A DNA stretch of 24,595 nt from a virus. Under the pieces are notes generated by a model that did no database searches, was not told the DNA's origin, and saw only the letters and a program-made list of their open reading frames with translations. How positions within the stretch are numbered: the first letter of the stretch is position 1; the number at the start of each line of letters is the position of its first letter. Below are positions 6,565-23,944 of the stretch, piece after piece. A program made the translations under genes and the position numbers. Where the stretch lies: positions 1 to 24,595 of the IMG/VR virus record IMGVR_UViG_3300025889_000898. The stretch is one strand, 5' to 3'.

Positions 6565-6578
6565 GAACTAAAGTTCCC

Positions 6579-6597
6579 TCAAACGATACCCACAACT
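6579..6597 (-). promoter_or_regulatory. Phage-type promoter for the tail/late operon (divergent copy)
   Basis: On the minus strand this reads AGTTGTGGGTATCGTTTGA, matching the 19-bp consensus AGTTGCGGGTATCGTATGT at 16 of 19 positions. It lies downstream of the nucleotide-operon terminator and upstream of the tail operon, where a late phage promoter is expected. Its deviations from the consensus may make it weaker than the copies near the polymerase gene. Confidence 0.65.
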
Positions 6598-12175: not shown

Positions 12176-12609
12176 CGGTTGTCGCCGCTGCCTCGTAGAT
12201 GACCACGGTTCTTGCGGTCAGCTAGTTTTTCGATGTTCATCTCAGCGATTTCGCCAAGCGTGTAGTCAATGTCATCGGCAATCATTGCGATGTAAAACAA
12301 GACATCACCAAGTTCTTTTGCAATCTCTAGTCGCTTTTCAGCGTCAATCTCGCGTGTGTCAAAAAACTCGTCTAATGGCATTTCATCGTCACGAATGAGT
12401 TTCTTGACCTTTTCGACTACCTCGCCAGCCTCGCCAGCCAGTCCCAGTGCAGGGTAAAGCAACATTCCGGGGTAAAACGCAAATTCACTGGCGCATTGCT
12501 CTTGGTAATGGTCAAAGGAATCGCCCTCTTCAGCGCGGAGCCACTGCTCATCTTCCTCAGCCATTATCCGTTCTTCTTCAGCCAGAAAGGCTTCACTGTA
12601 TTTTGCCAT
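12172..12609 (-). CDS. MazG-like nucleotide pyrophosphohydrolase
   Basis: A 145-aa all-helical protein with the MazG metal-binding signature: GEAGEVVEKVKK (E60, E63) and, 36 residues on, ELGDVLFYIAMIADD (E99, D102), followed by INIEKLADR-type sequence (MNIEKLADRKNRG). It should hydrolyse (d)NTPs to monophosphates and pyrophosphate. In marine phages it has been proposed to change ppGpp or nucleotide pools, but the true substrate here is not known. An acidic 40-residue N-terminal extension precedes the domain. Its ATG overlaps the upstream stop by one base (TAATG) and its stop overlaps the polymerase TTG start, showing tight coupling. Confidence 0.88.
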   Translation of the reverse strand: MAKYSEAFLAEEERIMAEEDEQWLRAEEGDSFDHYQEQCASEFAFYPGMLLYPALGLAGEAGEVVEKVKKLIRDDEMPLDEFFDTREIDAEKRLEIAKELGDVLFYIAMIADDIDYTLGEIAEMNIEKLADRKNRGHLRGSGDNR

Positions 12610-12971
12610 TATCCGGTTACCTTTCTGATTGGTGCAATTGTCAGAAAACCCTCTAGTTCAGGGTTTAGCTTGTTGAACAGGCGTGTGTAGTAAGGGGCTA
12701 GAGCGTTCTTTAGCTTGTAGCTGCCACCTATCGTATTGACTGGGTAATCCCAGCGAATGATTTCAAAGATGCTTTTCATGCCGTAGCGTGGTCTGCCACT
12801 AGCTATCTTTTCCATCACCAGCTTCTCCACCAAGTCGTAGACATGAGGGTTTGCAGCGTGAAACTCACGAAAGTATGCCTCGTGTTCATTGATTGGTGGT
12901 CGATTGTCATTGGCTGCTGTCGCCGCGCCGTCAGTATCTTCAAACGGCAGTTTCATTTGTGCGTTCATCAT
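12609..12971 (-). CDS. Conserved phage protein of unknown function (120 aa)
   Basis: After a polar leader (about residues 1-30) comes a compact domain: EAYFREFHAANPHVYDLVEK, then MEKIASGRPRYGMKSIFEII, RWDYPVNTIGGSYKLKNALA and PYYTRLFNKLNPELEGF. Proteins with this 'F...NP.V...........GRPRYG....E..RW.......G...KLNN..APYY.RLF....PEL.GFF' pattern are widespread in phages and prophages from memory, without a known function; the shape suggests nucleic-acid binding (inference). I start it at the first of two tandem ATGs (12971), with AAGGAG nine bases upstream. The start lies inside the end of the primase-helicase gene. A longer reading to 13022 is an artefact of the open frame. Confidence 0.75.
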   Translation of the reverse strand: MMNAQMKLPFEDTDGAATAANDNRPPINEHEAYFREFHAANPHVYDLVEKLVMEKIASGRPRYGMKSIFEIIRWDYPVNTIGGSYKLKNALAPYYTRLFNKLNPELEGFLTIAPIRKVTG

Positions 12972-14598
12972 TTTCGCTTTCTCCTTCTTCTGTTTCGGTA
13001 AATTCAACCAGTTGAGCCTCAATCAGCCGTCCTGTGTCGCGCTGGTAAAACAGCGTTCCGGCATCGCCAATAGAGCCGCTGAAACGGTTCTTCAGCACTC
13101 TGACCATGCGGAAATCGCTGTCGGGGTCGTCTGGGTCTTTCTGGAGGCCAATCGCTGCATCTGACAGCTGTGCCAATGAATGGCTTGACCGAAGTTGGCT
13201 CAAGCTAACTGCCGCGCCGTCCTCGTGACCTCGCCCACTGGGACGTGTCAGATGGCTGACCATTATCATGCCAATGTCCAGTTCCTGAACCAATGTCCTG
13301 AACTGTGTGACGCATTTGTCTAGTTCACGGCGTTCATCGACCATGTTGGCTGTCAGCATCGTAACGTGGTCTAAAATTATGAAATCACAATCCAAAGCCC
13401 TCGCCATGTACTGGATGCGCTGGCAGATGGTTTCCACGCTGCTCACGCCAAAACTGTCGTAAAGGACGCAAGTCCGGTCATTGAACAGGTCGTCAAACCC
13501 TTTTATGACCTCTTGGTCTGACGCTTGGCTCCGGTCAATCAACAGGTTCTTGTTCAGGTGGATACCCACCAGCCCCAGCAATGTGCGCTTTGGAGCCTCT
13601 TCAAGACTGATTAGACCAACCTTCTGGCCTGACATCATCAGGTGGTAAGCCACTTCCTTAACAAAGGTGGTCTTTCCGCAACCTGAACCAGCTGCCAAAC
13701 AAATCAACTCTTTCTTGCGTAACCCCATGAGGCGTTCATCAAGCATTGAGTAAGGCCAGCTGACTGCGCTTGCAGTTTCATCGACACTGATGATGTTACG
13801 GAAATCGTGGGCTGACCTAATACCATCTGGCCTGTATTCACGAGCCTGAAAGATGGCTTGAATGACATCAGCTGACTTGCCCTGCATCAGACACTCATTG
13901 GCGTCTTTAGCTGGTAGGTAAGCGATGAAAGCCTTGCCGGGCGGTAGTAATTCAGCACAAGCGACTGCTGCCTTCTGACCGACCTCATCAAGGTCGTACA
14001 TTAGGATTATCTCTTCAAAGCCCATCAGGTAATCCCAATTTGCTTTCAGTGTCTTAACTGCCGAAGGTGCGCCGTGGCTTAAACTAACAGTAGGCCACTT
14101 GTGGTTCTGAATTTGGCTGACTGACATCGCGTCAATCTCGCCTTCGCAAATCACCAGCTTTTTGCCCTTGTGCCACAAATGTGAACCGAACAGTGTCATC
14201 TGCTTGGCATCACCAACGATGCTAAATTGCTTCGTTGCTGTCCTTATTTTTTGTGCTACTGGCTTGCCGCCTTTGTTCCTGTAAACAGCCAGCTGGACAG
14301 GTTGCCCATTATGCTGGCTTGTGAGGTAGCCCCACTTTTTACAGGTAGCCTCTGTCAATCCTCTAGCTGGTATCGCTTTTGGGACGCCCGACAGTAGGCT
14401 TTCTTGCTTTTGATTATCTTGGTTTGGTATTGGCTTCTCCTTTCTGCCATCTTCCGGGCTACCGGATTGATAGGTTTGACAGGAGAAACAGAACGTATGT
14501 CCGTCATCGTAAACTCCATTTGCATCACTGCTGCCACAAGCGTCACAGCTTGTTCTGTGTAGGAAGGTTGACTGGCTGTCAGGTACGGCTTGCCGCAT
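12940..14598 (-). CDS. T7 gp4-like bifunctional DNA primase-helicase
   Basis: N-terminal zinc-binding motif Cys18-x2-Cys21 ... Cys37-x2-Cys40. The TOPRIM primase core has EGEIDAMS (152-159) and DLDEVG (202-207). The C-terminal RecA/DnaB-like helicase has Walker A GSGCGKTT (304-311), the Walker B strand CDFIILDHVTML, and the arginine/sensor region SHLTRPSGRGHEDG with the glutamine/arginine helix SLSQLRSSHSLAQLSDAAIG. The acidic tail (ETEEGESENDE) may contact the polymerase, as the T7 gp4 tail does. The RBS AAGGAG lies six bases before the ATG. At 552 aa it is close to T7 gp4. It overlaps the following gene by 32 bases. Confidence 0.95.
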   Translation of the reverse strand: MRQAVPDSQSTFLHRTSCDACGSSDANGVYDDGHTFCFSCQTYQSGSPEDGRKEKPIPNQDNQKQESLLSGVPKAIPARGLTEATCKKWGYLTSQHNGQPVQLAVYRNKGGKPVAQKIRTATKQFSIVGDAKQMTLFGSHLWHKGKKLVICEGEIDAMSVSQIQNHKWPTVSLSHGAPSAVKTLKANWDYLMGFEEIILMYDLDEVGQKAAVACAELLPPGKAFIAYLPAKDANECLMQGKSADVIQAIFQAREYRPDGIRSAHDFRNIISVDETASAVSWPYSMLDERLMGLRKKELICLAAGSGCGKTTFVKEVAYHLMMSGQKVGLISLEEAPKRTLLGLVGIHLNKNLLIDRSQASDQEVIKGFDDLFNDRTCVLYDSFGVSSVETICQRIQYMARALDCDFIILDHVTMLTANMVDERRELDKCVTQFRTLVQELDIGMIMVSHLTRPSGRGHEDGAAVSLSQLRSSHSLAQLSDAAIGLQKDPDDPDSDFRMVRVLKNRFSGSIGDAGTLFYQRDTGRLIEAQLVEFTETEEGESENDERTNETAV

Positions 14599-14620
14599 CT
14601 GTTTCTCCTTATGATTTGGG

Positions 14621-14815
14621 TTAAGCTAGGCTGTAGCGGGTGTAACGCTGACCAAGATGGTCTTGCTTCCACTCACTAATGATTTCGTATCCACGCTGCC
14701 GTAAGTCGGCTATGCGGCGCGGAAGCGACCTGACCCTGTAAAGGTCAACAGCCTCAACGAATGTGATCGAACCAACCTTCATCAAGTGGTCTAAAATCCG
14801 GTCATTCTGGCTCAT
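14621..14815 (-). CDS. Small helix-turn-helix protein (HTH_39-like, 64 aa)
   Basis: The whole protein is one winged-helix-like domain: NDRILDHLMKVGSITFVEAV, then DLYRVRSLPRRIADLRQRGY and EIISEWKQDHLGQRYTRYSL. This matches the phage HTH_39 pattern (RIL.HL...GSIT..EA...Y.I..L..RI.DLR..G..I). It may bind DNA as a local regulator or replication accessory. The start ATG (14815) overlaps the endonuclease stop, with AAGGAG nine bases upstream; an ATG two codons earlier is possible but would have only three bases of spacing. Confidence 0.78.
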   Translation of the reverse strand: MSQNDRILDHLMKVGSITFVEAVDLYRVRSLPRRIADLRQRGYEIISEWKQDHLGQRYTRYSLA

Positions 14816-15245
14816 TGTCATTTGCTCCTTCTTGTAACCATTCGGGTGGTATCGTCTTGTGGGCGTATCGGAAGCCGTGCTTCTCGCACCAGTCGCAGTA
14901 ACGATTGGGACTGCCTTTGTACAAAGGGGCGTTCTGATTGCTGAAGACGAAGCGAATGTCGATGTCGGGGTGCTGTTCTTTGATGAGCAAGTGTTTCTGC
15001 CTATCATCAACAGTCCAGCGACCCTTCGTTTCGACAAAGAAAAAGCCGCCTTGTTTTGGCAGCTTGAAATCAGGTAAGTAGGTGGATTGTCTTTCAGGCC
15101 AAGTGTACGAAACTTTGTCGTCCTTTGGTTCGTACACAACTGGTAGACCAGCATCTGCTATTTGGCGTGAAACTGTTTCTTCCAGACCACTCCTGTAGCC
15201 ATTTGCTATGGCGTGGCGTCTGCGCTTAGAAATTGTAAGCGACAC
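14802..15245 (-). CDS. T7-like endonuclease I (Holliday-junction resolvase)
   Basis: Clear homologue of T7 gp3. YRSGLEETV contains E22, YLPDF has D59, and FVETKG has E72 and K74; these correspond to the T7 catalytic set E20, D55, E65, K67. The following block DDRQKHLLIKEQHPDIDIRF and the segment LYKGSP..Y...CEKHGFRYA are nearly the T7 sequence. It should resolve branched DNA before packaging and cut host DNA. The start is a GTG (15245) inside the end of the SSB gene (20-base overlap), with a weak GAAG upstream; no in-frame ATG precedes the catalytic helix. At 147 aa it has the usual length. Confidence 0.93.
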   Translation of the reverse strand: MSLTISKRRRHAIANGYRSGLEETVSRQIADAGLPVVYEPKDDKVSYTWPERQSTYLPDFKLPKQGGFFFVETKGRWTVDDRQKHLLIKEQHPDIDIRFVFSNQNAPLYKGSPNRYCDWCEKHGFRYAHKTIPPEWLQEGANDNEPE

Positions 15246-15756
15246 CGTCTGCTTCTTCAGCGTTGTCGTTGGCTGCTACGAAGCCGCCCTCTTCAGCGGC
15301 AAATGAAACACCGCCGTTGCTACCTTCTGACAGTTCAATAATTTGAACGCCAGCAAGCTGAAGTGAGATGCCGACATTACCGCCAGCCTGGTATGGGTAC
15401 ATTGTGCCAGCTGCCTTCAACGTGGAGCCGCCAAAGATTGGTGGTACGTTGTTTTCGCTAATCATCTGCCCTGCGCTATCCACGAACTTTGGCTTGAACT
15501 TGGATTTAGTGACGATTATCAAATCGCCAGTGTCTTCATCTTTCTTAAAAGGCATCTTTGCGTCTTTGGCTTTCGCACCAAACGCATCGTTAGCCGCTGC
15601 TTTCGCAGCTGCAACCAATGGTTTGCCTTCTTCATGTGTAACCCTGATGTTGACCTTGTACTGACCGTTTGAATCAAACTGGAAGTCAGCCTTGTTCAAC
15701 CAAGGGTACATCGCCACCCCTTTCGGGGTTGTAAATGTTAGTTTCTGTTTTGCCAT
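15226..15756 (-). CDS. gp2.5-like single-stranded DNA-binding protein
   Basis: A 176-aa OB-fold-type protein starting KLTFTTPKGVAMYPWLNKAD. A beta-rich core (YKVNIRVTHEEGKPL, DLIIVTKSKFKPKFVD, NNVPPIFGGSTLKAAGTMYP, VGISLQLAGVQIIEL) is followed by a Gly-rich linker and an acidic C-terminal tail ending in Phe (DNAEEADGVAYNF). The acidic tail with terminal aromatic residue is the hallmark by which T7 gp2.5 contacts polymerase and helicase. It is shorter than T7 gp2.5 (232 aa). It sits right after a small gene with TAATG coupling and just upstream of endonuclease I, the same order as genes 2.5 and 3 in T7. Confidence 0.88.
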   Translation of the reverse strand: MAKQKLTFTTPKGVAMYPWLNKADFQFDSNGQYKVNIRVTHEEGKPLVAAAKAAANDAFGAKAKDAKMPFKKDEDTGDLIIVTKSKFKPKFVDSAGQMISENNVPPIFGGSTLKAAGTMYPYQAGGNVGISLQLAGVQIIELSEGSNGGVSFAAEEGGFVAANDNAEEADGVAYNF

Positions 15757-15932
15757 TAAAAGCTATCCTTTTCTGATTGTTTGGCGTCATTGTCTTGGTA
15801 TTGGGTTGGCTCACCGAAATCTTCTATCGACAAGCCAAGACTGTCGGCTTGAGCAAGCAAATCCAGTGGGATTGGCTCACCACGAGAAAGGTACAGCTTG
15901 CCCAAACCAAGGAGTTTTTCTCGTTGGTTCAT
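15756..15932 (-). CDS. Small hypothetical protein upstream of SSB (58 aa)
   Basis: An ATG at 15932 with AGGAA five bases upstream opens a 58-codon frame. Its TAA overlaps the SSB start (TAATG), a coupling repeated throughout this operon, which argues that it is real. The sequence begins MNQREKLLGLGKLYLSRGEP, continues IPLDLLAQADSLGLSIEDFG and ends in a polar, acidic tail. No family is recognised. It is the first gene after the phage promoter at 16009-16027 and the small hairpin at 15973-15994, so it would be transcribed in the same class as the replication genes. Confidence 0.65.
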   Translation of the reverse strand: MNQREKLLGLGKLYLSRGEPIPLDLLAQADSLGLSIEDFGEPTQYQDNDAKQSEKDSF

Positions 15933-15972
15933 TATTGTTCCTGCTGTTTGTTAGACATTATGCAGCGCAAAG

Positions 15973-15994
15973 AAAAAGGCGGCTGAACGCCACC
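15973..15994 (-). terminator. Weak intrinsic terminator or attenuator after the polymerase gene
   Basis: On the minus strand GGTGGC pairs with GCCGCC around loop GTTCA, followed by TTTTTC. The stem uses a T-G wobble on the minus strand, which would be a C-A mismatch on the plus strand, so it works only leftwards. It lies between a phage promoter and the replication genes, and could stop host polymerase coming from the early operon. Confidence 0.55.
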
Positions 15995-16008
15995 TCGATT
16001 TGCTTTCT

Positions 16009-16027
16009 GCATACGATACCCGCAACT
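16009..16027 (-). promoter_or_regulatory. Phage-type promoter for the replication operon
   Basis: Reads AGTTGCGGGTATCGTATGC on the minus strand, one mismatch from the 19-bp consensus. Its first bases overlap the RNA polymerase TAG stop codon. The position matches T7, where class II promoters follow gene 1. Confidence 0.8.
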
Positions 16028-18818
16028 AGCTGAAGGGGTACTTTGCCCTCTTGACCTTTGCCAATTCTAGCTTGCCATCATCCGGTATCTCTGGAAGGTT
16101 TTGACCGCCATCCGTCAATCTTGCGGCGGTTTGCCGCCTGATGTCTGCGTAAAGGCTGTAGTCAGCGTACTGGTCGTGAAATTCAAGTCTAACCGTGTTT
16201 CGTAGTATGGCAGCGTTGCCAATTGTTGTTGCAAAGCTGTCGTGGACACACATCAAATCCGTAACGCCTTTCTCAGCGCAACCTAGCACCGTAGACATCA
16301 AATGAGTTGCATCCATTGCATGAATGATGTTTGGCGCAATCGCATTTCTACTTTTCGTCCCTTTCACTTCATCTGTGTAAACGCGAGTGCTGGAGCGTTT
16401 TTCAACTGTGCGATTTGCGTAAGACCCGCCCCACCAAAAAAGCCGGACTTTACTGGGGTTTTTTTCGTGGTTTAGGTACTCTTGAAACGCTGGAAAACCA
16501 ATCTTAGTTGTCCATTGAAAATGCTTATTCTCAACCTTCAAGGCGTCTGAACAGGATTGGAAAAATGCCATTCCTTGTTCAGCTGACTTAACGGTCGCCT
16601 TGATTGCACGAACCAGTAGGTTGGCTAGGTAAAATGAAGCCGTGTAGCCACAATCCTCACCGTATGGGTGTTCTGTTCGTGGATGGGCCGGGTCTTGAAC
16701 TTGTTTGGTAAACTTGTCGAAGTAGCTTTTCCGCAACGCCTTCGCAATGCCCCAATCTTCAGAACTGTAAGCCCACGTCATGACTGGGCCTTTGGCAACC
16801 TTTCGGGTTAAACCCTCCCCACCATCATCATGCTTCAAGCTGAGAAGGGTTTCAGCTGCCACTTTGCGTCTGCTAACCTTGTCCAGTTCGTCTTCGTCCA
16901 AAGTGATTTCTTCTATCTGACCCTGCTCGTTTTCATTTAGCCTGATGCCTGTCGCAATCTCACGTTCCATCGTTTGGATGTCACTTGGAATTATCGCTAA
17001 AGCAGCGTCACGACACACAATGTACAAATCACGAGGTTCAATTTTGCCCTCATCTGGGTCAACAAGGTTTACCCAGTATCCGTCATGTTCATTCAAACTT
17101 GCCGCTGCGTAATGTTGGTAACCAGAGTTAGTGGCATCAAGGGCAACTGGAAGTCCAGAGTAGTAAACTTTACCCGCCAGTCTGGCCTCATTGTAAAGGT
17201 AGCTTTCACGACAGGCAGCTACGAACTGGAAAGGGTCATCTGCTTGCATCCAAAAATCAAAGTTCGTGCGAAAATCTGCGCCAGTCTTCGTGATGTCTTG
17301 GATGTTGTCGCCAACCCATTCCAAACGGTCTTCGTATGATTTCTTGTCGATGCGATTGCCCCAAGTGTTAGCCAGCTGAAGGTACAAAAACTCATCGTTT
17401 TCCGGCGTAACCGCTGTCTTGTTGTAAAACATGAACAACGCCCGGATGTAATCATTCTTTTGGAAATTGAAATCAGGCGTACAGTAGACACGCCCCCTGA
17501 AATCAAATTGATGGGGAAGCCAGAACTTATCCAAACCTTCGTCAGCGTAGGCCAGTAGTTCTCTAGCTTGCTTCCGGTGGTTATTGAGGTTCAGATTGTT
17601 TGCATCAACTTCTTGCTGTTCTTGCTGTACCCGCACTCTGTCCCTGTACCACTGGGCTTTTTGGGAGTTGTCGTATTTGACCCAAATTTGATTTTCGATT
17701 TCTTCATGGTCGTCAGGTCGGTGAAGTTCAGGAAAATCACCTAGTTTTTTGTAGTTTTTAGTTTCTACCACCCAATCAATGCAGTCTAAGACCGTTTCAT
17801 TGATGGTAAGCGGAACCTTCTGCAAACTATTGATGGCGTCAAGACAATGCTGCATCTCACCATTATTCACTCGTTTGGTGATTTCATCCTTCTGTTCGCC
17901 AGTTGCGTGTTTGACCAGCGGAACTAATTTTCCAACAGCTGGGTCGTGGTAAGGCCCACCTCGATTAAGAGATTTTGCATCCCAGTTATTAGGTGGCACA
18001 CCAACGATGGGTGTAAACATTGGAAACAAACCATCAATCAACTGATTGCCGTCAGCCAATTGTTGTTTGGCTAAAGTTGTCATCACAATGTGACCGATAG
18101 GATGAGGCGAAGGTTTGCCGTTTTTCTCAACGTACAGCATCTTTTCCTCAAACAAGTCACACCCACGCATCACACAAGCTATTAGGAACGAGCCAACGGC
18201 CTTGTATTTGTCGTCAGACCACTCTTCAAATGCAGCTTCCCACTCAGGAAACCTACGGTCTGCTTCAGCCATTACTCTTTCTGCGTGGGTCAATTGCCAT
18301 TCTAGGTAATCGTCTTCTTCCTTATCGCCTTGTTTGAACTTGCCCATGTACTTTAACTGGTCAACCGTGGGAAAAAGCGTCTTTTTAAGTTCAGTCATCA
18401 GGCGTCTACCCGCACGAGTTTGCCTCATGTAGGCTTCGCGTGTCAGGGCTTCCATTGCCATGCCGGCTCGATGAAAGACGTTTTGTGACTTTAGGACTTG
18501 GGCGGCACTGTCTTGGCAGATTTTCAATGCAGTGATTGCAATCAAATCGGGGTCAACAGGCATCACTGGCTCAATCCATTGGGATTTGCTGCTATGACCA
18601 GCCTCTGCGACAAAAGCCATTACAGCTCCCATCACGGCCTGTTGAACTTCCTCTGCCTGTAGCTTGCTAGACTTCGTTTCAGACAGTCCCTGACGCTGCT
18701 CAAGCTGCTTGCGCCGCTTTTCGGCACGAACACGCCCCTTCGTCAGCATTTCTTGCTCACGGTCTATTTGTTTCTGCATTTCTGGGGTGATTGGCTCACC
18801 CTGATTGTCAATTGTCAT
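16026..18818 (-). CDS. T7-like single-subunit DNA-directed RNA polymerase
   Basis: 930 aa, slightly longer than T7 RNA polymerase (883). Catalytic motifs: motif A DATNSGYQHYAAA with D561 (T7 D537); motif B KGPVMTWAYSSEDWG with K676 and Y684 (T7 K631, Y639); motif C VHDSFATT with D860 (T7 D812). The C-terminus is KYPFS, equivalent to the aromatic 'foot' FAFA of T7. The N-terminal about 60 residues are charged and helical. It should transcribe the middle and late genes from the AGTTGCGGGTATCGTATGT promoters seen in this window. The ATG has AAGGAG 12 bases upstream, a long spacing. Four such promoters precede its operon, suggesting positive feedback. Very high confidence. Confidence 0.97.
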   Translation of the reverse strand: MTIDNQGEPITPEMQKQIDREQEMLTKGRVRAEKRRKQLEQRQGLSETKSSKLQAEEVQQAVMGAVMAFVAEAGHSSKSQWIEPVMPVDPDLIAITALKICQDSAAQVLKSQNVFHRAGMAMEALTREAYMRQTRAGRRLMTELKKTLFPTVDQLKYMGKFKQGDKEEDDYLEWQLTHAERVMAEADRRFPEWEAAFEEWSDDKYKAVGSFLIACVMRGCDLFEEKMLYVEKNGKPSPHPIGHIVMTTLAKQQLADGNQLIDGLFPMFTPIVGVPPNNWDAKSLNRGGPYHDPAVGKLVPLVKHATGEQKDEITKRVNNGEMQHCLDAINSLQKVPLTINETVLDCIDWVVETKNYKKLGDFPELHRPDDHEEIENQIWVKYDNSQKAQWYRDRVRVQQEQQEVDANNLNLNNHRKQARELLAYADEGLDKFWLPHQFDFRGRVYCTPDFNFQKNDYIRALFMFYNKTAVTPENDEFLYLQLANTWGNRIDKKSYEDRLEWVGDNIQDITKTGADFRTNFDFWMQADDPFQFVAACRESYLYNEARLAGKVYYSGLPVALDATNSGYQHYAAASLNEHDGYWVNLVDPDEGKIEPRDLYIVCRDAALAIIPSDIQTMEREIATGIRLNENEQGQIEEITLDEDELDKVSRRKVAAETLLSLKHDDGGEGLTRKVAKGPVMTWAYSSEDWGIAKALRKSYFDKFTKQVQDPAHPRTEHPYGEDCGYTASFYLANLLVRAIKATVKSAEQGMAFFQSCSDALKVENKHFQWTTKIGFPAFQEYLNHEKNPSKVRLFWWGGSYANRTVEKRSSTRVYTDEVKGTKSRNAIAPNIIHAMDATHLMSTVLGCAEKGVTDLMCVHDSFATTIGNAAILRNTVRLEFHDQYADYSLYADIRRQTAARLTDGGQNLPEIPDDGKLELAKVKRAKYPFS

Positions 18819-18913
18819 CCGTTAGTAATTCTCCTTGTGAAACTACTGTCCCATGCAGCTGCGTCTTAGCGCAATAGGGCAAATGGTGTTAAATGTGGGG
18901 ATGCTGGGGAGAA

Positions 18914-19153
18914 CTAGCATTTTGCTTTGGCTAGTTCGTCAAATCCCCATCTGTGCAAAATCTCACGCACCTGTTCCCTGTCAAAACTGTCACCTTCGAA
19001 ATCAGCCTCACGGTCAGGCGACAGGACGTAAGTCACTGCCGCCTTGTGAAGGACGTTTATTGAGGCACCCATGTCGTAAAGACCACCCTCGCCGTAAAAC
19101 GAGTGGCAGTATTCGACAAAAGGCTTGAGTATCGTCTTCAGTGTGTTTTCCAT
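18914..19153 (-). CDS. Small early hypothetical protein (79 aa)
   Basis: Begins MENTLKTILKPFVEYCHSFY, then GEGGLYDMGASINVLHKAAV, TYVLSPDREADFEGDSFDRE and QVREILHRWGFDELAKAKC. The C-terminal helix resembles a small alpha/beta protein, but no family is recognised. GGGGAA lies just upstream of the ATG. It is two bases from the preceding small gene and about 95 bases before the RNA polymerase, in the early operon, where T7-like phages place small host-takeover proteins. That role is inference from position. Confidence 0.65.
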   Translation of the reverse strand: MENTLKTILKPFVEYCHSFYGEGGLYDMGASINVLHKAAVTYVLSPDREADFEGDSFDREQVREILHRWGFDELAKAKC

Positions 19154-19155
19154 GA

Positions 19156-19326
19156 TTATTCCCCTTTCGTACTGTTGTTGTCGTTGACTGCTAGCCCAGC
19201 GAGGTCAGCTAAAGTCGCTCTAGGTCGCTTCATTGACCCCATTGTCAAAGCCTTCATGAGGGCTTTCTCGGCATCGTCATTGTATTCAGCTACGCTATTC
19301 TTCGGTGTTTGGACTTTCGTTGTCAT
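19156..19326 (-). CDS. Small early hypothetical protein (56 aa)
   Basis: I place the start at the ATG at 19326 (MTTKVQTPKNSVAEYNDDAE), which has AGGAG six to seven bases upstream. A longer open frame to 19458 runs through two of the phage promoters and is not credible. The protein is polar, with a basic centre (KALTMGSMKRPRATLADLAG). No domain is recognised. It is the first gene after the promoter cluster and is followed at once by the 79-aa gene. Confidence 0.65.
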   Translation of the reverse strand: MTTKVQTPKNSVAEYNDDAEKALMKALTMGSMKRPRATLADLAGLAVNDNNSTKGE

Positions 19327-19356
19327 TTTCACTCTCCTGTGTCTGTTTCGGTTTCT

Positions 19357-19375
19357 GCATAAGGTTCCCGCAACT
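19357..19375 (-). promoter_or_regulatory. Phage-type promoter copy, proximal to early genes (degenerate)
   Basis: Minus strand AGTTGCGGGAACCTTATGC; four mismatches to the consensus, three of them in the central TATCG block. It lies closest to the first early gene and is probably the weakest of the four. Confidence 0.6.
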
Positions 19376-19405
19376 TTCGACAGGCTTTGGTCAACGCAGC
19401 TTCTT

Positions 19406-19424
19406 GCATAAGATACCCGCAACT
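19406..19424 (-). promoter_or_regulatory. Phage-type promoter copy
   Basis: Minus strand AGTTGCGGGTATCTTATGC; two mismatches to the consensus. Second of four copies spaced 49, 36 and 37 bases. Confidence 0.72.
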
Positions 19425-19441
19425 CAATTTGCTGGTTTCCT

Positions 19442-19460
19442 ACATACGATACCCGCAACT
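19442..19460 (-). promoter_or_regulatory. Phage-type promoter copy (consensus)
   Basis: Minus strand AGTTGCGGGTATCGTATGT, followed by AGGAAACCAGC. Identical over 19 bases with the copy at 19479-19497, and the two also share downstream AG(G)AAACCAGC. Confidence 0.78.
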
Positions 19461-19478
19461 CAATCGTGGCTGGTTTCT

Positions 19479-19497
19479 ACATACGATACCCGCAACT
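19479..19497 (-). promoter_or_regulatory. Phage-type promoter copy (consensus), distal
   Basis: Minus strand AGTTGCGGGTATCGTATGT, followed by AGAAACCAGCC. Furthest upstream of the four-copy cluster before the RNA polymerase operon. Confidence 0.78.
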
Positions 19498-19529
19498 GCT
19501 GGCTGCACGGATTGGCTGCGCTGTGTGTT

Positions 19530-19699
19530 TATAATGAGTGCGTCCTAATTGGACATTTTGCTTTGGATGCACGATGGGTGCATGAGAACGACCATGATGT
19601 CGTTGGTGCTGAACGTACAATGACTATTGCATCGTGCGTTCTTTGTTAGTAGAACAAAACAGGAACATCGTCAATAAAGATATCGCATGGAGACGCAAA
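19530..19699 (+). promoter_or_regulatory. Structured leader of the plus-strand zinc-ribbon gene, with -10-like TATAAT
   Basis: TATAAT occurs at 19530-19535 but lacks a good -35. Downstream are three dyads. ATGCAC/GTGCAT lies around GATGG (19567-19583). AACGAC/GTCGTT lies around CATGAT (19587-19604). GCACGATG (19569-19576) can instead pair with CATCGTGC (19630-19637). The first and third pairings are mutually exclusive, like an attenuator or RNA switch. The dyads could equally be protein operators between divergent transcription units. Confidence 0.4.
19646..19674 (-). promoter_or_regulatory. Possible host sigma70 promoter for the early operon
   Basis: Minus strand TTGACG (19674-19669), 17-base spacer, then TACTAA (19651-19646). 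The -35 matches 5 of 6, the -10 only 3 of 6. A host promoter is needed somewhere upstream of the polymerase genes, and this is the best I see. It is weak evidence. Confidence 0.3.
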
Positions 19700-19882
19700 A
19701 TGACTGAATGGCCTGTGCCTAAATGGAGACAAAAGATGCTAGATGCCGAAGCCAAAAGACAGGAACAGCCACGCTGTGTCAGCTGTGGTCAGCCAGAAAA
19801 TATAATCTGGGTACATGGACACGGACAATGTGCTTATTGTAAAGTTAACGTCCAGCCTTGCTGTAGTGGTGAGACTTGTTAG
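19700..19882 (+). CDS. Small zinc-ribbon protein (60 aa)
   Basis: I start it at the ATG at 19700 (MTEWPVPKWRQKMLDAEAKR), with GGAG seven bases upstream; a longer frame from 19634 lacks a good RBS. A basic helix is followed by RCVSCGQPENIIWVHGHGQC, then AYCKVNVQPCCSGETC. The pairs C-x2-C ... C-x2-C make a zinc ribbon, with two more Cys and a last Cys at the tail. It may bind nucleic acid or a host protein. It is on the strand opposite to the neighbouring operons and is followed by a small membrane protein, the same kind of pairing as at 6209-6564. Function unknown. Confidence 0.65.
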   Translation: MTEWPVPKWRQKMLDAEAKRQEQPRCVSCGQPENIIWVHGHGQCAYCKVNVQPCCSGETC

Positions 19883-19901
19883 TGATTGAAGGCATTGCGT
19901 C

Positions 19902-20036
19902 ATGAAGCATCCAATTTATGGCTTTTTCAAAATTGCCGGCCTTAATATCTTTTTGTTGAGTGTCTTTTGTTTTTTCATCTGGCTTTATGGCATCGGCGAA
20001 TCAGGAATCGTTAGTCTAGCTATAGGTACAGTTTAG
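19902..20036 (+). CDS. Small single-pass membrane protein (44 aa)
   Basis: The ATG at 19902 has GAAGG nine bases upstream and opens a 44-codon frame to TAG. After MKHPIYGFFK comes one strongly hydrophobic segment (GLNIFLLSVFCFFIWLYGIG) and a short apolar tail (ESGIVSLAIGTV). It follows the zinc-ribbon gene by 19 bases, so the two likely share a transcript. No family is recognised; host-membrane effectors are one possibility. Confidence 0.55.
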   Translation: MKHPIYGFFKIAGLNIFLLSVFCFFIWLYGIGESGIVSLAIGTV

Positions 20037-20081
20037 AGATTACTTTCCCTTCCTCCTTAGGGTGGACTAATTAAAAACACG

Positions 20082-20110
20082 AAAAAAAAAGGCCACCCGA
20101 AGGTGACCTT
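20082..20110 (-). terminator. Rho-independent terminator of the integrase gene
   Basis: Minus strand AAGGTCACC-TTCG-GGTGGCCTT (9 bp with one wobble, stable TTCG loop) followed by a run of eight T. It lies 20 bases after the integrase stop. The hairpin may also act weakly on the plus-strand transcript of the small genes, since CTTTTTG follows there. Confidence 0.88.
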
Positions 20111-20129
20111 AAATGTCTTTTTGATGCCC

Positions 20130-21050
20130 CTACAACGCCCTGACAGCGTTCAGTAGGTTGTTCTTGCGTGTATGTACATAGCGGCGCGTAGTGCGTGTGT
20201 CAGCGTGACCTAGAATGTCTGCAATCTCAAATTCGTTTGCACCAACATTGTTAGACAAGCGACTGGCGGCTGTATGTCGGCACACATGAAACAGCCATAG
20301 CGGGTCGCCCTTCCCTACATCACGTCTAGCCTTGTTCCAGTTACGGTAGAAGGTGCGATGGGAAAATGCCTTATCAATAACAGGCAGCAGACGCTCGTAG
20401 GCGGCCCTTGCTTCAGCATTGAGGGGAACTTCACGTTCACCGCTTTTGCACACCTCTTCGGGCAAATACAGCCATTCACCACAGTCTGACAGTTCAACTA
20501 TCGGCTTTGTGATTGCCCGGCACTCACCAAGTCTCATTCCGGTGTTGCATGACAAAATCACAAGGTCAGCCATCCACGGCTTTTTCACCACGTCACGCAG
20601 ATAGGCGACAAGTTCGCGCTGTTCATCATGAGTAAAGTAACGTGGGCGACCAGCCTTGATGGTTTCGTATTTCAGCTTAATTGGGTTGTCTACCACGTCT
20701 TTGTCGTTTGCGTAGGACATGACACGAGATATGCCAGCCATATACTTATTGGCTGTGTTCTTGCTGATGCCTCGTGTTTCGATGAGGTGGTCAACAAAGT
20801 CGTAGATATGCTTGCGTCTTACGTCTGCAAGTGTCAGCTGACCGAAATCCTTGTAGTCAGCGAACCAGCGGATACCACGCATATTGAACGTGCGGGTGTG
20901 GTCTTTTAGCCAGACACGCTCCGCAATCTTAGTTGCGTAGGCCACAAGGGTCGGTACGCTAGTGGTTACTGGTGGTTTGTTGGTAGTTGCCTGAGTTGAT
21001 ACAAATGATTGTGCAAAGAGGTCACTTTGGATTGGGCTATAGTTGTTCAT
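20130..21050 (-). CDS. int: Tyrosine recombinase (phage integrase), 306 aa
   Basis: Catalyses site-specific integration. The N-terminal SAM-like core-binding domain (about 34-130) is followed by the catalytic domain with R173 (NTGMRLGE), K202 (VCKSGEREVPL), H255 and R258 (FHVCRHT), H282 (ILGHADTRTT) and nucleophile Y291 (RRYVHTR). I start it at the ATG at 21050, with AAGG upstream. The open frame continues to 21191, but those 47 residues (beginning MAPRDGFEPPAKRLTVA) are antisense translation of the tRNA-Asn att core, a common annotation artefact. It lies beside attP, has its own terminator, and its best promoter (21246-21274) is beyond the att core. Confidence 0.95.
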   Translation of the reverse strand: MNNYSPIQSDLFAQSFVSTQATTNKPPVTTSVPTLVAYATKIAERVWLKDHTRTFNMRGIRWFADYKDFGQLTLADVRRKHIYDFVDHLIETRGISKNTANKYMAGISRVMSYANDKDVVDNPIKLKYETIKAGRPRYFTHDEQRELVAYLRDVVKKPWMADLVILSCNTGMRLGECRAITKPIVELSDCGEWLYLPEEVCKSGEREVPLNAEARAAYERLLPVIDKAFSHRTFYRNWNKARRDVGKGDPLWLFHVCRHTAASRLSNNVGANEFEIADILGHADTRTTRRYVHTRKNNLLNAVRAL

Positions 21051-21077
21051 CGCTTTACCTTCCGAACTTTGGTTTCG

Positions 21078-21232
21078 GAAGATAGGGAACGAAATGTAGC
21101 TTAACCCTTGATAAACCGCCGAAAAACAGCAGTCTGACATCGCGACTGTTAATCGCTTGGCCGGCGGTTCGAATCCGTCCCGGGGAGCCAAACCTTAGCC
21201 TCAAGAGCAAGCGACTGTAGTTCCCTATCTTC
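21078..21232. repeat. 13-bp perfect inverted repeat flanking the att core
   Basis: GAAGATAGGGAAC at 21078-21090 is the exact inverse complement of 21220-21232, and the pair is centred on the tRNA-derived core. In an integrase mRNA started from the 21246-21274 promoter the arms could close a large stem around the antisense tRNA sequence. It could also be a pair of accessory or integrase arm-type binding sites. Confidence 0.8.
21142..21190 (+). other. attP: attP core: 3' portion of a tRNA-Asn gene
   Basis: Reads as the tRNA from the anticodon stem to the 3' end. GCGA/TCGC stem (21142-21145, 21153-21156) around loop CTGTTAA with anticodon GTT (Asn); 5-base variable loop; T-arm GGCGG-TTCGAAT-CCGTC (21163-21179); acceptor 3' strand CCGGGGA, discriminator G, and CCA ending at 21190. 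No D-arm or matching 5' acceptor strand occurs upstream, so it is not a complete gene. Such fragments restore the host tRNA on integration. The probable crossover is in the anticodon loop, whose stem gives the inverted core sites (family knowledge and inference). Confidence 0.85.
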
Positions 21233-21393
21233 GCTTGACCCCCTCAATATAGCTATTCGCCGTATCGCTTGCAACCGCTAGATGTTCTTTTTCGGTGCAA
21301 GTCGTTGGTTTGCCTGAGTTTGAGCAAATCGTTGGCAAATCGTTAATGGGTAAAGCGATTGTTTATCTCTTAACCATTTTAGGCCAAGCGACT
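21207..21393. promoter_or_regulatory. Array of short repeated sites beside attP (candidate integrase/repressor sites)
   Basis: Two word families recur. CAAGCGA(C/T)-type words lie at 21207-21218 (+), 21231-21237 (-), 21263-21272 (-), 21352-21361 (+, AAAGCGATTG) and 21384-21393 (+). The same word is found in the anticodon 3' stem (minus). GCAA(A/G)TCGTT occurs directly at 21297, 21324 and 21335, the last two 11 bases apart, one helical turn. This density next to attP suggests arm-type integrase sites or operators; which protein binds is unknown. Confidence 0.45.
21246..21274 (-). promoter_or_regulatory. Sigma70-type promoter reading toward integrase
   Basis: Minus strand -35 TTGCAA (21274-21269), spacer of 17 bases, -10 TATATT (21251-21246; 5 of 6). 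Start expected near 21239, giving a leader of about 190 bases that runs antisense through the att core. Confidence 0.6.
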
Positions 21394-21453
21394 AGCTTTT
21401 TTTTGGCTATTGCAGACCAGCCTATTCAACCACTATCCTACCCAAATGAATAG
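21346..21453 (+). CDS. Possible leader peptide of the large plus-strand gene (35 aa)
   Basis: A frame starting MGKAIVYLLTILGQATSFFL, then AIADQPIQPLSYPNE. Its hydrophobic stretch looks like a membrane segment or signal peptide. Its TAG (21451-21453) lies just past the ATG (21446) of the large gene, which otherwise has no RBS, so translation coupling is possible. It has no clear RBS itself and could be a chance frame. Confidence 0.25.
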   Translation: MGKAIVYLLTILGQATSFFLAIADQPIQPLSYPNE

Positions 21454-23335
21454 TGTCAGAGAAAACAATGAGTACTGGAGGTCGGTGTATCGCAACTTCA
21501 CTGACTATTTGCAACACAACGACATCAGACTGCGTAATGTCGGTGCAAGTGAAATCCGGCAATTAGCTCAATCCGACCAGTTTAAGAATACCCTAGAAGA
21601 CCCAAGTAGACTTGCAGAACATCTCGTAAGCATGGATGCAAAGCGAACAGAAACCCTCGCTTCATTAGATATGAAATGGTTTGACTTTGGTGTTTTAGAA
21701 GATTGTTCTGACGATGGCTTTGGCCTGTTTTTTATTAAAAGTCAAAACGCCGAAACAGGTGGTCGGACATCCTTGCTAATTGATTTACCCCGATCACCAA
21801 ATGTGATGTTTCGAAAGGCCGAACTGCTTAAAGGTCATCCTATCGCTGTTTATGGTAACGAAACAGAGTTTTTGGATTTCACGGCTATGCCCTATGACGG
21901 CTCACTAGCTTCCTTCAAAAAGATTGAATCACTCTCGGATTTCACAAGCCAAGAACAGGCTGTCTCTGCTCTGAGCGATGGTGCAAAAAAAGCGATTTCG
22001 CTTGAACAAGAGCTGAAGCAAAGCCGCGAATACACCGCCAAACTTTCAAAGTTATACAACAGCGTTAAAGACAAGCCTGAAGGCATAGAGCTGTTGTTGT
22101 ACATCGACATCCAAAAACAACAGGACAAAGTAGTTGCGCTAGAAGCAGAGTTTGAAAAAGCACAAGAATGGCGAAAAAAGAAGATTCAAGCTATTTCTGA
22201 TGTCGAACAACAAGAGTTTCAGTCGTTAAAAGAGGTAGATAAAGAATACGACCAAGCCGCTACTGACCTTGGTGATTGTGTCTCTTTTGAAATGCTGGAA
22301 GCCGCTGGCGATAAGTTATATCAATCAACTTTACTAGAAGCCTTGTTCCCATGGGTTAGTGCCGACCCAGAACCATCACCAGACGATAATTTGATTGGGT
22401 TTCTGGACAGAATGTCCCTTGCAGAAACACGCACTTTATTTGGACATGGCGAAAGGATTTTAAAATTAAGGCAGGAGCGAAAAGAAATTGTTGATGCCGG
22501 GATTAAATCAAGAAGGGCTTTTGAAGACGGTGCTGCCGAGCTAGAGGAAAAAGCGCAAAAGGTAAAAGCAGAACTAGACGCAGAGCGTAAAATATTGAAC
22601 AAAATGATTTCGTTGCAGCTGGAACATGAAGAAGCAAAAAACAGCAGTAAACAGTCTCAAACAAATCTAGTTACTGGTGAGGTTATACAAGCCAGAATTG
22701 AGGCAAATCGGCGTCAAAAAGCAATTGAGGCTACTCAAGCGCAAAACGATGAAATTGAGAGAAGCACTGACGAATTAGCGTATGATGCGTCCCTTTATCA
22801 AGAAATGGTAGACGCATACCGGGTACGGAAAAACTTCCGAAACATAAAGGTCATAAACTGGCAAAAGCAAACACGAGAAAAACGTGGTGGGAAAGCCATG
22901 AAACACGCCGTAAAAGTAATCAACGAAGCCATGCCCGAACTAATCAATTCAGAAATGCACTTAGGCTTTGAAGATTTACACGGCAGAGAAATGCTTGCCC
23001 TTCGAACTGGTGTCATCCTGCCCAATGGTGATTTAACTTTCCGTGTTGTTGACCGTTTAGATGAACAAGGTAATACCCTTTGGTGTTATCTTACGGACTA
23101 CAAAACCCATTGTAACATTAGCATCCGAATCATAAACCACGGAAAGTGGCAAATTGTTACTGTTTTAAGTCATGATGAAGACCACTGGACATATTATGAG
23201 CAAAATACGGATGGTGTAGACCAGCCTGTGACACAGTTTGCTCCGGGATTTAAAACTCTTGAGCAATATGCTGAGTATCATAAGTTGATCGTTGCGCATA
23301 TTGATCGAGAAAACCCTGTCGTTGCTAGTGCGTAG
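21446..23335 (+). CDS. Large orphan coiled-coil protein, possible lysogenic-conversion gene (629 aa)
   Basis: No family recognised. The N-terminal region (to about 170) is a mixed alpha/beta domain (WFDFGVLEDCSDDGFGLFFI, SLLIDLPRSPNVMFRKAELL). From about 175 to 465 the sequence is mostly charged helix, with heptad-like coiled coil (KQQDKVVALEAEFEKAQEWR, EDGAAELEEKAQKVKAELDA). The C-terminal about 150 residues form a beta-rich domain (GFEDLHGREMLALRTGVILP, GDLTFRVVDRLDEQGNTLWC). No membrane segment or nuclease/ATPase motif is seen. I chose the ATG at 21446; a TTG at 21410 would add 12 residues, and neither has an RBS. It lies alone on the plus strand between attP and the lysis genes, an accessory position. 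Anti-phage, exclusion or host-modifying roles are inference only. Confidence 0.8.
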   Translation: MNSVRENNEYWRSVYRNFTDYLQHNDIRLRNVGASEIRQLAQSDQFKNTLEDPSRLAEHLVSMDAKRTETLASLDMKWFDFGVLEDCSDDGFGLFFIKSQNAETGGRTSLLIDLPRSPNVMFRKAELLKGHPIAVYGNETEFLDFTAMPYDGSLASFKKIESLSDFTSQEQAVSALSDGAKKAISLEQELKQSREYTAKLSKLYNSVKDKPEGIELLLYIDIQKQQDKVVALEAEFEKAQEWRKKKIQAISDVEQQEFQSLKEVDKEYDQAATDLGDCVSFEMLEAAGDKLYQSTLLEALFPWVSADPEPSPDDNLIGFLDRMSLAETRTLFGHGERILKLRQERKEIVDAGIKSRRAFEDGAAELEEKAQKVKAELDAERKILNKMISLQLEHEEAKNSSKQSQTNLVTGEVIQARIEANRRQKAIEATQAQNDEIERSTDELAYDASLYQEMVDAYRVRKNFRNIKVINWQKQTREKRGGKAMKHAVKVINEAMPELINSEMHLGFEDLHGREMLALRTGVILPNGDLTFRVVDRLDEQGNTLWCYLTDYKTHCNISIRIINHGKWQIVTVLSHDEDHWTYYEQNTDGVDQPVTQFAPGFKTLEQYAEYHKLIVAHIDRENPVVASA

Positions 23336-23342
23336 AAGAAGA

Positions 23343-23405
23343 ATGTTTTACCTGAAGATAGCAATGTGGGTGATCTTAGGGCTTTTGTTGGCTTGGCTCA
23401 TCTAA
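23343..23405 (+). CDS. Possible 20-aa membrane peptide
   Basis: Eight bases after the large gene's stop an ATG opens a 20-codon frame that is almost wholly hydrophobic (MFYLKIAMWVILGLLLAWLI), ending in TAA before the terminator. GAAGAAG precedes it. It would be a single-pass peptide cotranscribed with the large gene. The composition is striking, but the size leaves chance possible. Confidence 0.35.
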   Translation: MFYLKIAMWVILGLLLAWLI

Positions 23406-23409
23406 GACG

Positions 23410-23440
23410 AAAAAAAAGGCCAGAGGATAAACCTCTAGCC
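23410..23440 (-). terminator. Terminator of the lysis cassette (probable end of late operon)
   Basis: Minus strand GGCTAGAGG-TTTAT-CCTCTGGCC (9 bp with one wobble), then eight T. The endolysin TAG stop lies within the stem. Confidence 0.88.
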
Positions 23441-23944
23441 CATAGCTAATGCTTGTTTTCTTGTCTCGTCATTCCGTCTAAGCCACCCTCGCCCAAACGT
23501 ATCAAAAGTCTTCAAAGTCCGATAGAATTGTTCACGGTACATCGCAATCCGGTTAATGACATTCGCCACCTCATGCTTCTTCACGAGCATAAGGGTCAGC
23601 GGCCCAATAGAACCATCTTCTTTGGCTTCTACAGCCCTCTGGAGCGTCCTTGCGGCTCTTCCAGTACCAGCGTTAACAGCGAAGTCAAAGACCGCCCAGT
23701 CAAGCCCTGAAGCCAAATCTTGGCAACGACATCTGTCCCAGTAATTGCGTCTGTAGATAGGCATCACGTCATGCTTTGTGATTGCCTTCATTACTTCTTC
23801 AGTGGCGTCACCACCGTAAAACTCATCGTAGACGGCTTTGGTGACACCTAAGTTCGTCATGCCACCGGGGTCATCAGGATGGTCTACAAAGCCACCTTCG
23901 TGCGCTAGCAGCATAGTCATACAAGTATCAAAGTTCTGGTTCAT
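23435..23944 (-). CDS. Endolysin, glycoside hydrolase family 108 type (169 aa)
   Basis: The N-terminal motif LLAHEGGFVDHPDDPGGMTN carries the catalytic Glu16 of GH108 (HEGGY/F...D.GG.T..G). It is followed by YRRNYWDRCRCQDLASGLDW, AVFDFAVNAGTGRAARTLQR and the peptidoglycan-binding-3-like part DGSIGPLTL. It should cut the glycan chain of peptidoglycan for lysis. It has no signal peptide, so it needs the holin. The start overlaps the holin stop by ATGA. At 169 aa it is normal for the family. It is the last gene before the terminator. Confidence 0.92.
   Translation of the reverse strand: MNQNFDTCMTMLLAHEGGFVDHPDDPGGMTNLGVTKAVYDEFYGGDATEEVMKAITKHDVMPIYRRNYWDRCRCQDLASGLDWAVFDFAVNAGTGRAARTLQRAVEAKEDGSIGPLTLMLVKKHEVANVINRIAMYREQFYRTLKTFDTFGRGWLRRNDETRKQALAMG

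What the first reader, a model, noticed from the sequence alone, without database searches (positions are those of the whole stretch)
21142..23335. After integration the orphan coiled-coil gene would lie directly downstream of the restored host tRNA-Asn
The tRNA piece is on the plus strand with its 3' end at 21190, and the large gene is on the plus strand from 21446 with no strong promoter or RBS of its own. In the prophage, host tRNA 5' half plus phage 3' half would recreate tRNA-Asn, and read-through from the tRNA promoter could express this gene in lysogens. The accessory position, opposite strand and lack of phage promoters fit a lysogenic-conversion, exclusion or defence gene. This is my best candidate for a new system in the window.
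Basis: inference. Interest (0 to 1): 0.68.

Follow-up and report, generated by a model that had tools for sequence, protein, structure and literature searches.

The report
Phage cargo gene beside integration site
A marine bacterial virus that can settle into its host's chromosome carries, right beside the spot where it inserts, an extra gene for a large rope-like protein of a family absent from the reference libraries searched; it looks like a passenger gene used while the virus lies dormant, perhaps to keep rival viruses out, but its function is untested.

Summary
Window 21142-21190 equals the 3' 49 nt of tRNA-Asn of SAR116-type alphaproteobacteria, and a 629-aa gene (21446-23335) follows on the same strand. 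One SAR116 contig (L022) shows the predicted junction: complete tRNA-Asn followed by a homologous phage arm. The 255 nt between is an attP arm dense in TCGCTT repeats, without a detectable terminator or promoter. The six phage-RNA-polymerase promoter-like repeats all drive the opposite strand, and none is near the gene.

The gene is not a complete orphan. Two other viral contigs encode distant homologues (matching N- and C-terminal domains around a helical middle) in the same place: divergent from the integrase across attP. It is accessory: such a gene occurs in 4 of 37 comparable contigs and is missing from a related SAR116 prophage. It is AT-richer than its neighbours. This fits a moron (lysogen-stage cargo gene).

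tRNA read-through is possible but unproven. In one family member the tRNA piece faces away from the gene, so read-through is not a family trait. Defence is my preferred function, but no profile, fold or experiment supports it directly. New protein family of a known kind (att-site moron).

The parts
20130..21050 (-). tyrosine integrase, 306 aa, without room for a separate N-terminal arm-binding domain (inference from length and Pfam layout)
   Evidence: Pfam Phage_integrase 1.9e-17 and Phage_int_SAM_5 1.3e-6; PHROG_1 2.4e-47
20089..20110 (-). terminator-like hairpin after the integrase
21142..21190 (+). 3' 49 nt of tRNA-Asn(GTT): attP core, regenerates the host tRNA
21132..21142 (.). left half of the attP core: 7 differences from sister contig L042 within otherwise identical sequence
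21049..21392 (.). repeat sites RTCGCTTKRCC / TCGCTT on both sides of the core (21049, 21152, 21209, 21231, 21264, 21353, 21386), probable integrase or accessory-factor binding sites; the one at 21152 lies inside the tRNA
   Evidence: 7 sites vs 0.29 expected in 511 bp; the 4 exact matches of the 11-mer in 24.6 kb are all here; inverted pair 21078-21090 / 21220-21232
21191..21445 (+). attP right arm and presumed leader of the cargo gene
   Evidence: conserved arm in L022, L014, L045, L043; no terminator-like or promoter-like site on +
21446..23335 (+). cargo gene, 629 aa: N-terminal beta/alpha domain (about aa 61-170), long helical, probably coiled-coil middle (about 169-463), C-terminal domain (about 476-629)
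   Evidence: ORF; N and C domains homologous to L045 (0 of 1000 shuffles each); helices with pLDDT 70-83 in the middle only; GC 42.4% vs 46.4-50.3% in 13 other genes
23343..23405 (+). possible 20-aa hydrophobic peptide starting 8 nt after the cargo stop
   Evidence: one conservative and one silent change in the sister contig
23417..23441 (-). terminator-like hairpin closing the convergent lysis operon; same sequence in L045
23435..23944 (-). GH108 lysozyme, convergent with the cargo
   Evidence: 86% identical in L045
19349..19497 (-). four of six copies of a 27-nt phage-RNAP-type promoter repeat (others at 16001 and 6571), all driving the - strand
16026..18818 (-). T7-like single-subunit RNA polymerase
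   Evidence: Pfam RNA_pol 3.3e-65

Best explanation
The gene is a moron: an accessory, horizontally acquired cargo gene in a temperate T7-like phage of SAR116-type bacteria, slotted between the right arm of attP and the end of the lysis operon. Integration at tRNA-Asn places it about 255 nt downstream of the regenerated tRNA. Shown: location, orientation, accessory distribution, foreign composition, insulation from the phage-promoter-type repeats, and membership of a small diverged protein family that occupies the same place in other integrase-bearing T7-like phages. Inferred: (a) it is expressed mainly in the prophage state, because its upstream context is the only part changed by integration, either from the tRNA promoter or from a promoter hidden in the arm; (b) the protein forms long coiled-coil dimers with a nucleic-acid-contacting N-terminal domain; (c) its benefit is to the lysogen, most likely blocking other phages.
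For: Position and junction. Family: window-L045 and L045-L114 each exceed 1000 of 1000 shuffles in both the N and the C domain, while six N-versus-C controls do not. Same slot, divergent from int, in L045, L114 and L080/window; L043 has a truncated large coiled-coil-like ORF there too. Accessory: 4 of 37 loci with int then RNAP and at least 1.2 kb upstream; none in the G091 prophage or the G090 remnant. GC3 0.37-0.44 for the four cargo genes against 0.46-0.56 for their neighbours. No phage-RNAP-type promoter repeat on its strand. Terminator between lysozyme and cargo. L045 N-terminus weakly resembles DNA-binding families: PHROG_323 T5 D5-like regulator E=0.0039, Pfam HTH_7 E=0.03.
Against: No expression data. 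No defence-library match. No fold: AlphaFold2 mean pLDDT 44.6 and 40.7. HTH-like signals are only in L045 and are below curated cut-offs. Direct window-L114 similarity is not significant (180 and 106 of 1000 shuffles), so that link rests on L045. No SAR116 genome tested carries it (0 of 136; but that search had no positive control), so prophage carriage is not directly seen. The attP repeats next to it could mean an att-related role instead.
Confidence: 0.5

Rival explanations
1. It is part of the integration or lysogeny machinery: a DNA-binding protein that binds the TCGCTT repeats at attP and helps integration, excision direction or repression of the early genes.
For: It always abuts attP and is divergent from int. 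The repeats run up to about 20 nt before the L043 start codon and about 60 nt before the window start codon. L045 has weak HTH-type signals.
Against: Related prophage G091 has int, RNAP and the same genome plan without the gene; 33 of 37 int-RNAP loci lack it. The repeats are largely missing in L114, which has the gene (3 TCGCTT vs 0.32 expected, no longer motif), while L028, L014 and L022 have repeats and no such gene seen. The protein is unusually large for such a factor (recalled).
Confidence: 0.18
2. It is a lysogenic-conversion gene with a non-defence effect on host physiology (surface, growth, stress).
For: Same moron evidence as the main reading. In other elements at the same tRNA-Asn, different small genes lie about 350 nt downstream on the same strand: a 116-aa ORF in L014 and a 125-aa lipoprotein-like ORF in L038.
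Against: No signal peptide, enzyme or membrane domain in any library; coiled-coil architecture gives no hint of metabolism.
Confidence: 0.17
3. It is an early or middle lytic-cycle gene (host takeover or anti-defence) or a virion or ejected protein, transcribed from an unrecognised promoter.
For: PHROG_13674 tape-measure match E=0.012, covering the coiled coil, typical of chance helix matches.
Against: The phage-RNAP-type promoter repeats found all lie on the other strand. Structural genes are all on - in window, L045 and G091. Accessory in a phage group whose virion genes are shared.
Confidence: 0.1
4. It is inert hitchhiking DNA recently trapped at the attachment site.
For: Foreign composition and rarity.
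Against: The frame is intact over 629 codons; both end domains are recognisable across three very diverged phages, which needs long maintenance.
Confidence: 0.05

Closest known systems
Prophage morons and lysogenic-conversion genes at att-proximal positions (general concept, recalled)
   Same: Accessory, different base composition, opposite strand, insulated by a terminator, next to the attachment site
   Different: Protein family not in Pfam, PHROGs, NCBIfam, PADLOC or PDB libraries searched; expression not known
BstA prophage defence proteins with their aba DNA element (PMC8585504, passages read)
   Same: Works-like analogy only: prophage cargo protein, possible DNA-binding N-terminus in L045, short DNA repeats next to the start of the gene
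   Different: No KilA-N match; protein is far longer with a coiled coil; repeats here are explained by attP; no defence assay
Transcriptional coupling of integrated elements to tRNA promoters (suggestion by Swenson et al. as quoted in PMC2951348, passages read)
   Same: Gene lies downstream of a regenerated tRNA on the same strand
   Different: No transcript shown; arrangement not conserved in L114
Integrase-bearing T7-like marine phages: cyanophages P-SSP7 and S-TIP37 (PMC8776855, passages read), pelagiphages and roseophages
   Same: T7-like RNAP with an integrase and a tRNA attP
   Different: In HTVC022P, CRP-114 and CRP-361 small same-strand genes and a MarR gene precede int; the cyanophage attP lies downstream of int; no divergent coiled-coil cargo

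Membership tests
Prophage moron / lysogenic-conversion gene | Present in some, absent in other close relatives at the same locus | tested here: met
   Absent in G091 prophage and G090 remnant; a large divergent gene in 4 of 37 loci
Prophage moron / lysogenic-conversion gene | Base composition unlike neighbouring phage genes | tested here: met
   GC 42.4%, GC3 38.6% vs 46.4-50.3% and 44-56% in 13 genes; same trend in L045, L043, L114
Prophage moron / lysogenic-conversion gene | Own transcription unit | tested here: inconclusive
   Terminator separates it from the lysis operon; no recognisable own promoter
Prophage moron / lysogenic-conversion gene | Expressed in the lysogen and changes the host | not testable with these tools
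   No RNA or phenotype data
tRNA read-through-coupled prophage gene | Gene downstream of the regenerated tRNA, same strand | tested here: met
   Window, L045, L043; junction seen in L022 without the gene in view
tRNA read-through-coupled prophage gene | No terminator between tRNA and gene | tested here: inconclusive
   None found by scan; T-run difference from empty sites not significant, 21 vs 11 sites, p=0.12
tRNA read-through-coupled prophage gene | Arrangement conserved across the protein family | tested here: not met
   In L114 the tRNA-Pro piece (3284-3354 +) faces int, the cargo is on -
Known anti-phage defence families (PADLOC 2.0.0) | Match to a defence profile | tested here: not met
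   0 families for window, L045, L114 and L043 proteins
BstA | KilA-N-like N-terminal domain | tested here: not met
   No such Pfam match in window, L045 or L114
BstA | Cognate DNA element giving self-immunity | not testable with these tools
   Repeats exist but are attP-like; function needs plaque assays
Lysogeny repressor | Present in all temperate relatives with the same early region | tested here: not met
   Absent in G091 prophage

The most novel reading that the evidence does not exclude
A new prophage-encoded defence family whose gene is switched on by integration itself: in the free phage genome nothing transcribes it, while in the lysogen the regenerated tRNA (or the new junction at the other end, as in L114) supplies the promoter. 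The repeat-rich attP arm could also bind the protein, so that the excised, replicating phage is spared. Attachment site, switch and self-immunity tag would be one stretch of DNA.
Probability: 0.08. Interest if true: 0.8.

Novelty: new member of a known kind. Interest (0 to 1): 0.42.

Why it matters
SAR116 bacteria are a major marine lineage (recalled), and these contigs suggest they are hosts of temperate T7-like phages with a cargo slot next to attP. A protein family absent from the libraries searched, held in the same slot by phages with different tRNA sites, is a concrete candidate for a new lysogen-protection gene. Because integration changes only its upstream context, it also makes the old suggestion that prophages borrow tRNA promoters directly testable.

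Tried and rejected
Whole-protein searches for relatives: viral contigs found only the sister contig, genome contigs none, phages none, plasmids two chance hits at E 3-4, PDB none below 0.1. Homologues were found only by synteny, via the shared tRNA piece and the integrase alignment, and then by domain comparison.

Genome searches: window protein in 136 genomes of the order of G003: 3 matches at E<=1, best 0.048; the one opened is a flagellar-hook-like protein. C-domain profile in 385 genomes of the class: 6 matches at E<=0.05; 4 of the 6 were opened and are unrelated, 2 were not opened. Full profile A3 in the 136: 0, with no positive control among genomes.

Other: lysozyme as an anchor gave only contigs already known. 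L045 and L114 proteins as viral-contig queries found only themselves. Structure predictions too weak for a fold search, so none was run. Loss of T-run after the tRNA: not significant. 3.5-residue periodicity of the helices: p 0.038, 0.062, 0.248 for the three helical stretches and 0.015 for the C-terminal stretch, so weak support for coiled coil; the helix prediction is the better evidence. PHROG tape-measure match rejected as a helix artefact. Rfam MIR946 at 21316-21405 (20 bits against a gathering score of 190) rejected as chance. The idea that the N domain is an OB fold is from reading the sequence pattern only and is not claimed. L043's 270-aa fragment shows no detectable homology to the others and is counted only as a large gene in the same slot.

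Full report
What the window is. The window is a 24.6-kb virus record, not a host contig. It encodes a T7-like RNA polymerase, ribonucleotide reductase, ThyX, 5'-3' exonuclease and a GH108 lysozyme, virion proteins and a tyrosine integrase. All genes but the one in question read leftwards. The polymerase and integrase are far from any phage in the annotated collection: best integrase matches about 30% identical, in pelagiphages, and polymerase matches about 25%.

The observation. The 49 nt at 21142-21190 are the 3' part of tRNA-Asn. A 47-nt pattern from it matched 36 contigs among 84,980 species genomes, 13 of 36 titled SAR116 or Puniceispirillum, the rest other alphaproteobacteria apart from one titled only Proteobacteria. 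Phage and host are identical from 21142 to the CCA end, so integration would rebuild the tRNA. The clearest support is L022, a Puniceispirillum contig: a complete tRNA-Asn followed by AACCTTAGCCTCAAGAGCAAGCGA, the same 24 nt as in the window, and then by a diverged but alignable arm with the same repeats. The contig ends 203 nt later, so whether that element carries the gene cannot be seen.

The interval. Between tRNA and gene lies an attP arm. TCGCTT occurs 7 times in 20950-21460 against 0.29 expected; L045 has 9 against 0.36 and L043 9 against 0.35. All four exact matches of RTCGCTTKRCC in the window lie at 21049-21392, and one of them is inside the tRNA itself. A perfect 13-nt inverted pair flanks the core symmetrically. 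I infer that these are integrase or accessory-factor sites. The arm shows no terminator-like or promoter-like site on the + strand, which is weak evidence either way, since the promoter scan as a whole found no more than chance.

Transcription. Six copies of a 27-nt repeat at 6571, 16001, 19349, 19398, 19434 and 19471, all in one orientation, look like the phage polymerase's promoters (0.36 chance matches expected for the 15-mer, 6 found). All would drive the leftward genes; none lies at the cargo gene. A terminator-like hairpin closes the lysis operon at 23441-23417 and has the same stem sequence in L045, shielding the cargo from antisense late transcription. The gene is thus outside the visible lytic programme. 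Whether the tRNA promoter reads into it is open. I tested whether phage-occupied tRNA-Asn genes lack the T-rich run seen after empty ones: 4.5 against 5.4 T in the first 12 nt, 11 against 21 sites, p=0.12, not significant.

A family, not an orphan. Whole-protein searches against viral contigs, genomes, phages, plasmids, PDB and four profile libraries found nothing beyond a sister contig. Looking instead at what lies in the same place in other phages gave results. L045, with the same tRNA-Asn piece, carries a 774-aa gene there. L114, found through the integrase, carries a 693-aa gene between its lysis genes and two integrases. L043 carries a large ORF cut by the contig end. Local-alignment scores with 1000 shuffles: window-L045 N domain 52 against a mean of 25.5, C domain 54 against 27.5; L045-L114 54 against 25.8 and 52 against 28.1; 0 of 1000 shuffles reached each of these four. 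Window-L114 directly is not significant (180 and 106 of 1000), nor are six N-versus-C controls. So three proteins with the plan [N domain]-[long helices]-[C domain] form a chain of homology with L045 in the middle. All three are divergent from int across attP and convergent with lysis genes. L114 also has RNAP, ssb-like, endonuclease-like and helicase-like genes in the same order after int (names by likeness to window genes), so the slot is syntenic.

Accessory and foreign. Of 72 integrase loci, 54 have RNAP downstream of int, 37 of these have at least 1.2 kb upstream, and 4 of 37 have the large divergent gene: window's population, L043, L045, L114. Smaller reverse-strand ORFs in L085, L126 and L148 were not counted. 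A prophage of the same plan in the 2.75-Mb SAR116 genome G091 runs straight from lysozyme to its end near a tRNA-Lys without the gene, and so does a remnant in G090. Cargo G+C is 42.4% (GC3 38.6%) against 46.4-50.3% in 13 other window genes; the cargo genes of L045, L043 and L114 are likewise poorer than their neighbours. Compared with its sister contig, the window is identical from 10981 to 23361 except for 11 nt at the core, then differs at 94 positions up to 24595, so a recombination boundary lies just past the cargo.

Against read-through as the rule. In L114 the tRNA-Pro piece (Rfam tRNA, 28.5 bits against a gathering score of 29, E=0.0006; 3' end at 3354) is on the + strand and faces the integrases, while the cargo starts at 3028 on the - strand. 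After integration its cargo would sit at the other junction. What is common is that the start of the gene abuts attP, so integration always changes its upstream context; a tRNA promoter upstream is not common.

What the protein might do. AlphaFold2 gave confident helices only for the middle (mean pLDDT 44.6 for one sequence, 40.7 for three), so no fold search was justified. The L045 version has weak DNA-binding-type signals at its N-terminus (PHROG_323 T5 D5-like regulator E=0.0039; HTH_7 E=0.03). No defence profile matches. By position and distribution I favour a lysogen-stage gene, and among those a phage-exclusion or defence function, as the most frequent benefit of such genes (recalled, including the known clustering of defence genes in prophage hotspots). 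BstA is a useful analogy, a prophage defence protein with a DNA repeat element overlapping its start (PMC8585504, passages), but the KilA-N domain test is not met. Coupling of integrated elements to tRNA promoters has been suggested before (Swenson et al., quoted in PMC2951348, passages).

Literature. Six searches listed no paper on this gene family or on a SAR116 tRNA-Asn temperate podovirus; I read only the listings and passages of four papers. Most subscription papers are not in that library.

Verdict. The new element is a diverged protein family held in the attP-proximal slot of several integrase-bearing T7-like phages.

Noticed in passing
21132-21142: Left half of the attP core differs at 7 positions from sister contig L042, while about 10 kb to the left and 2.2 kb to the right are identical; this resembles attP change after excision from variant sites, described for Sa3int phages (PMC8649754, passages).
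   Followed up: partly
23343-23405: A 20-aa very hydrophobic ORF begins 8 nt after the cargo stop; it stays open in the sister contig with one conservative change.
   Followed up: partly
6571-6597, 16001-16027, 19349-19497: Six copies of a 27-nt repeat in one orientation, probably the promoters of the phage's own RNA polymerase; not found by the same matrix in L045, L043 or L114.
   Followed up: partly
L069-L071 (contig 3300046170_000265, 57.4 kb): The L045 contig holds about 1.3 genome equivalents with two different terminase and capsid-region sets: chimeric assembly or tandem related phages.
   Followed up: no
L184, L190-L192 (G091 about 384.9-424.5 kb): A complete-looking T7-like prophage in a 2,753,527-bp SAR116 genome, between a tRNA-Lys and coaD; same gene plan as the window but no cargo gene.
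   Followed up: partly
L014, L038, L028, L035: SAR116 tRNA-Asn is a repeated insertion site; other elements there have different small genes downstream of the tRNA (116-aa, 125-aa lipoprotein-like, others).
   Followed up: no
20130-21050: The integrase is only 306 aa and the arm sites look like the core site, suggesting that core and arm sites may be bound by the same domain rather than by a separate arm-binding domain (inference).
   Followed up: no
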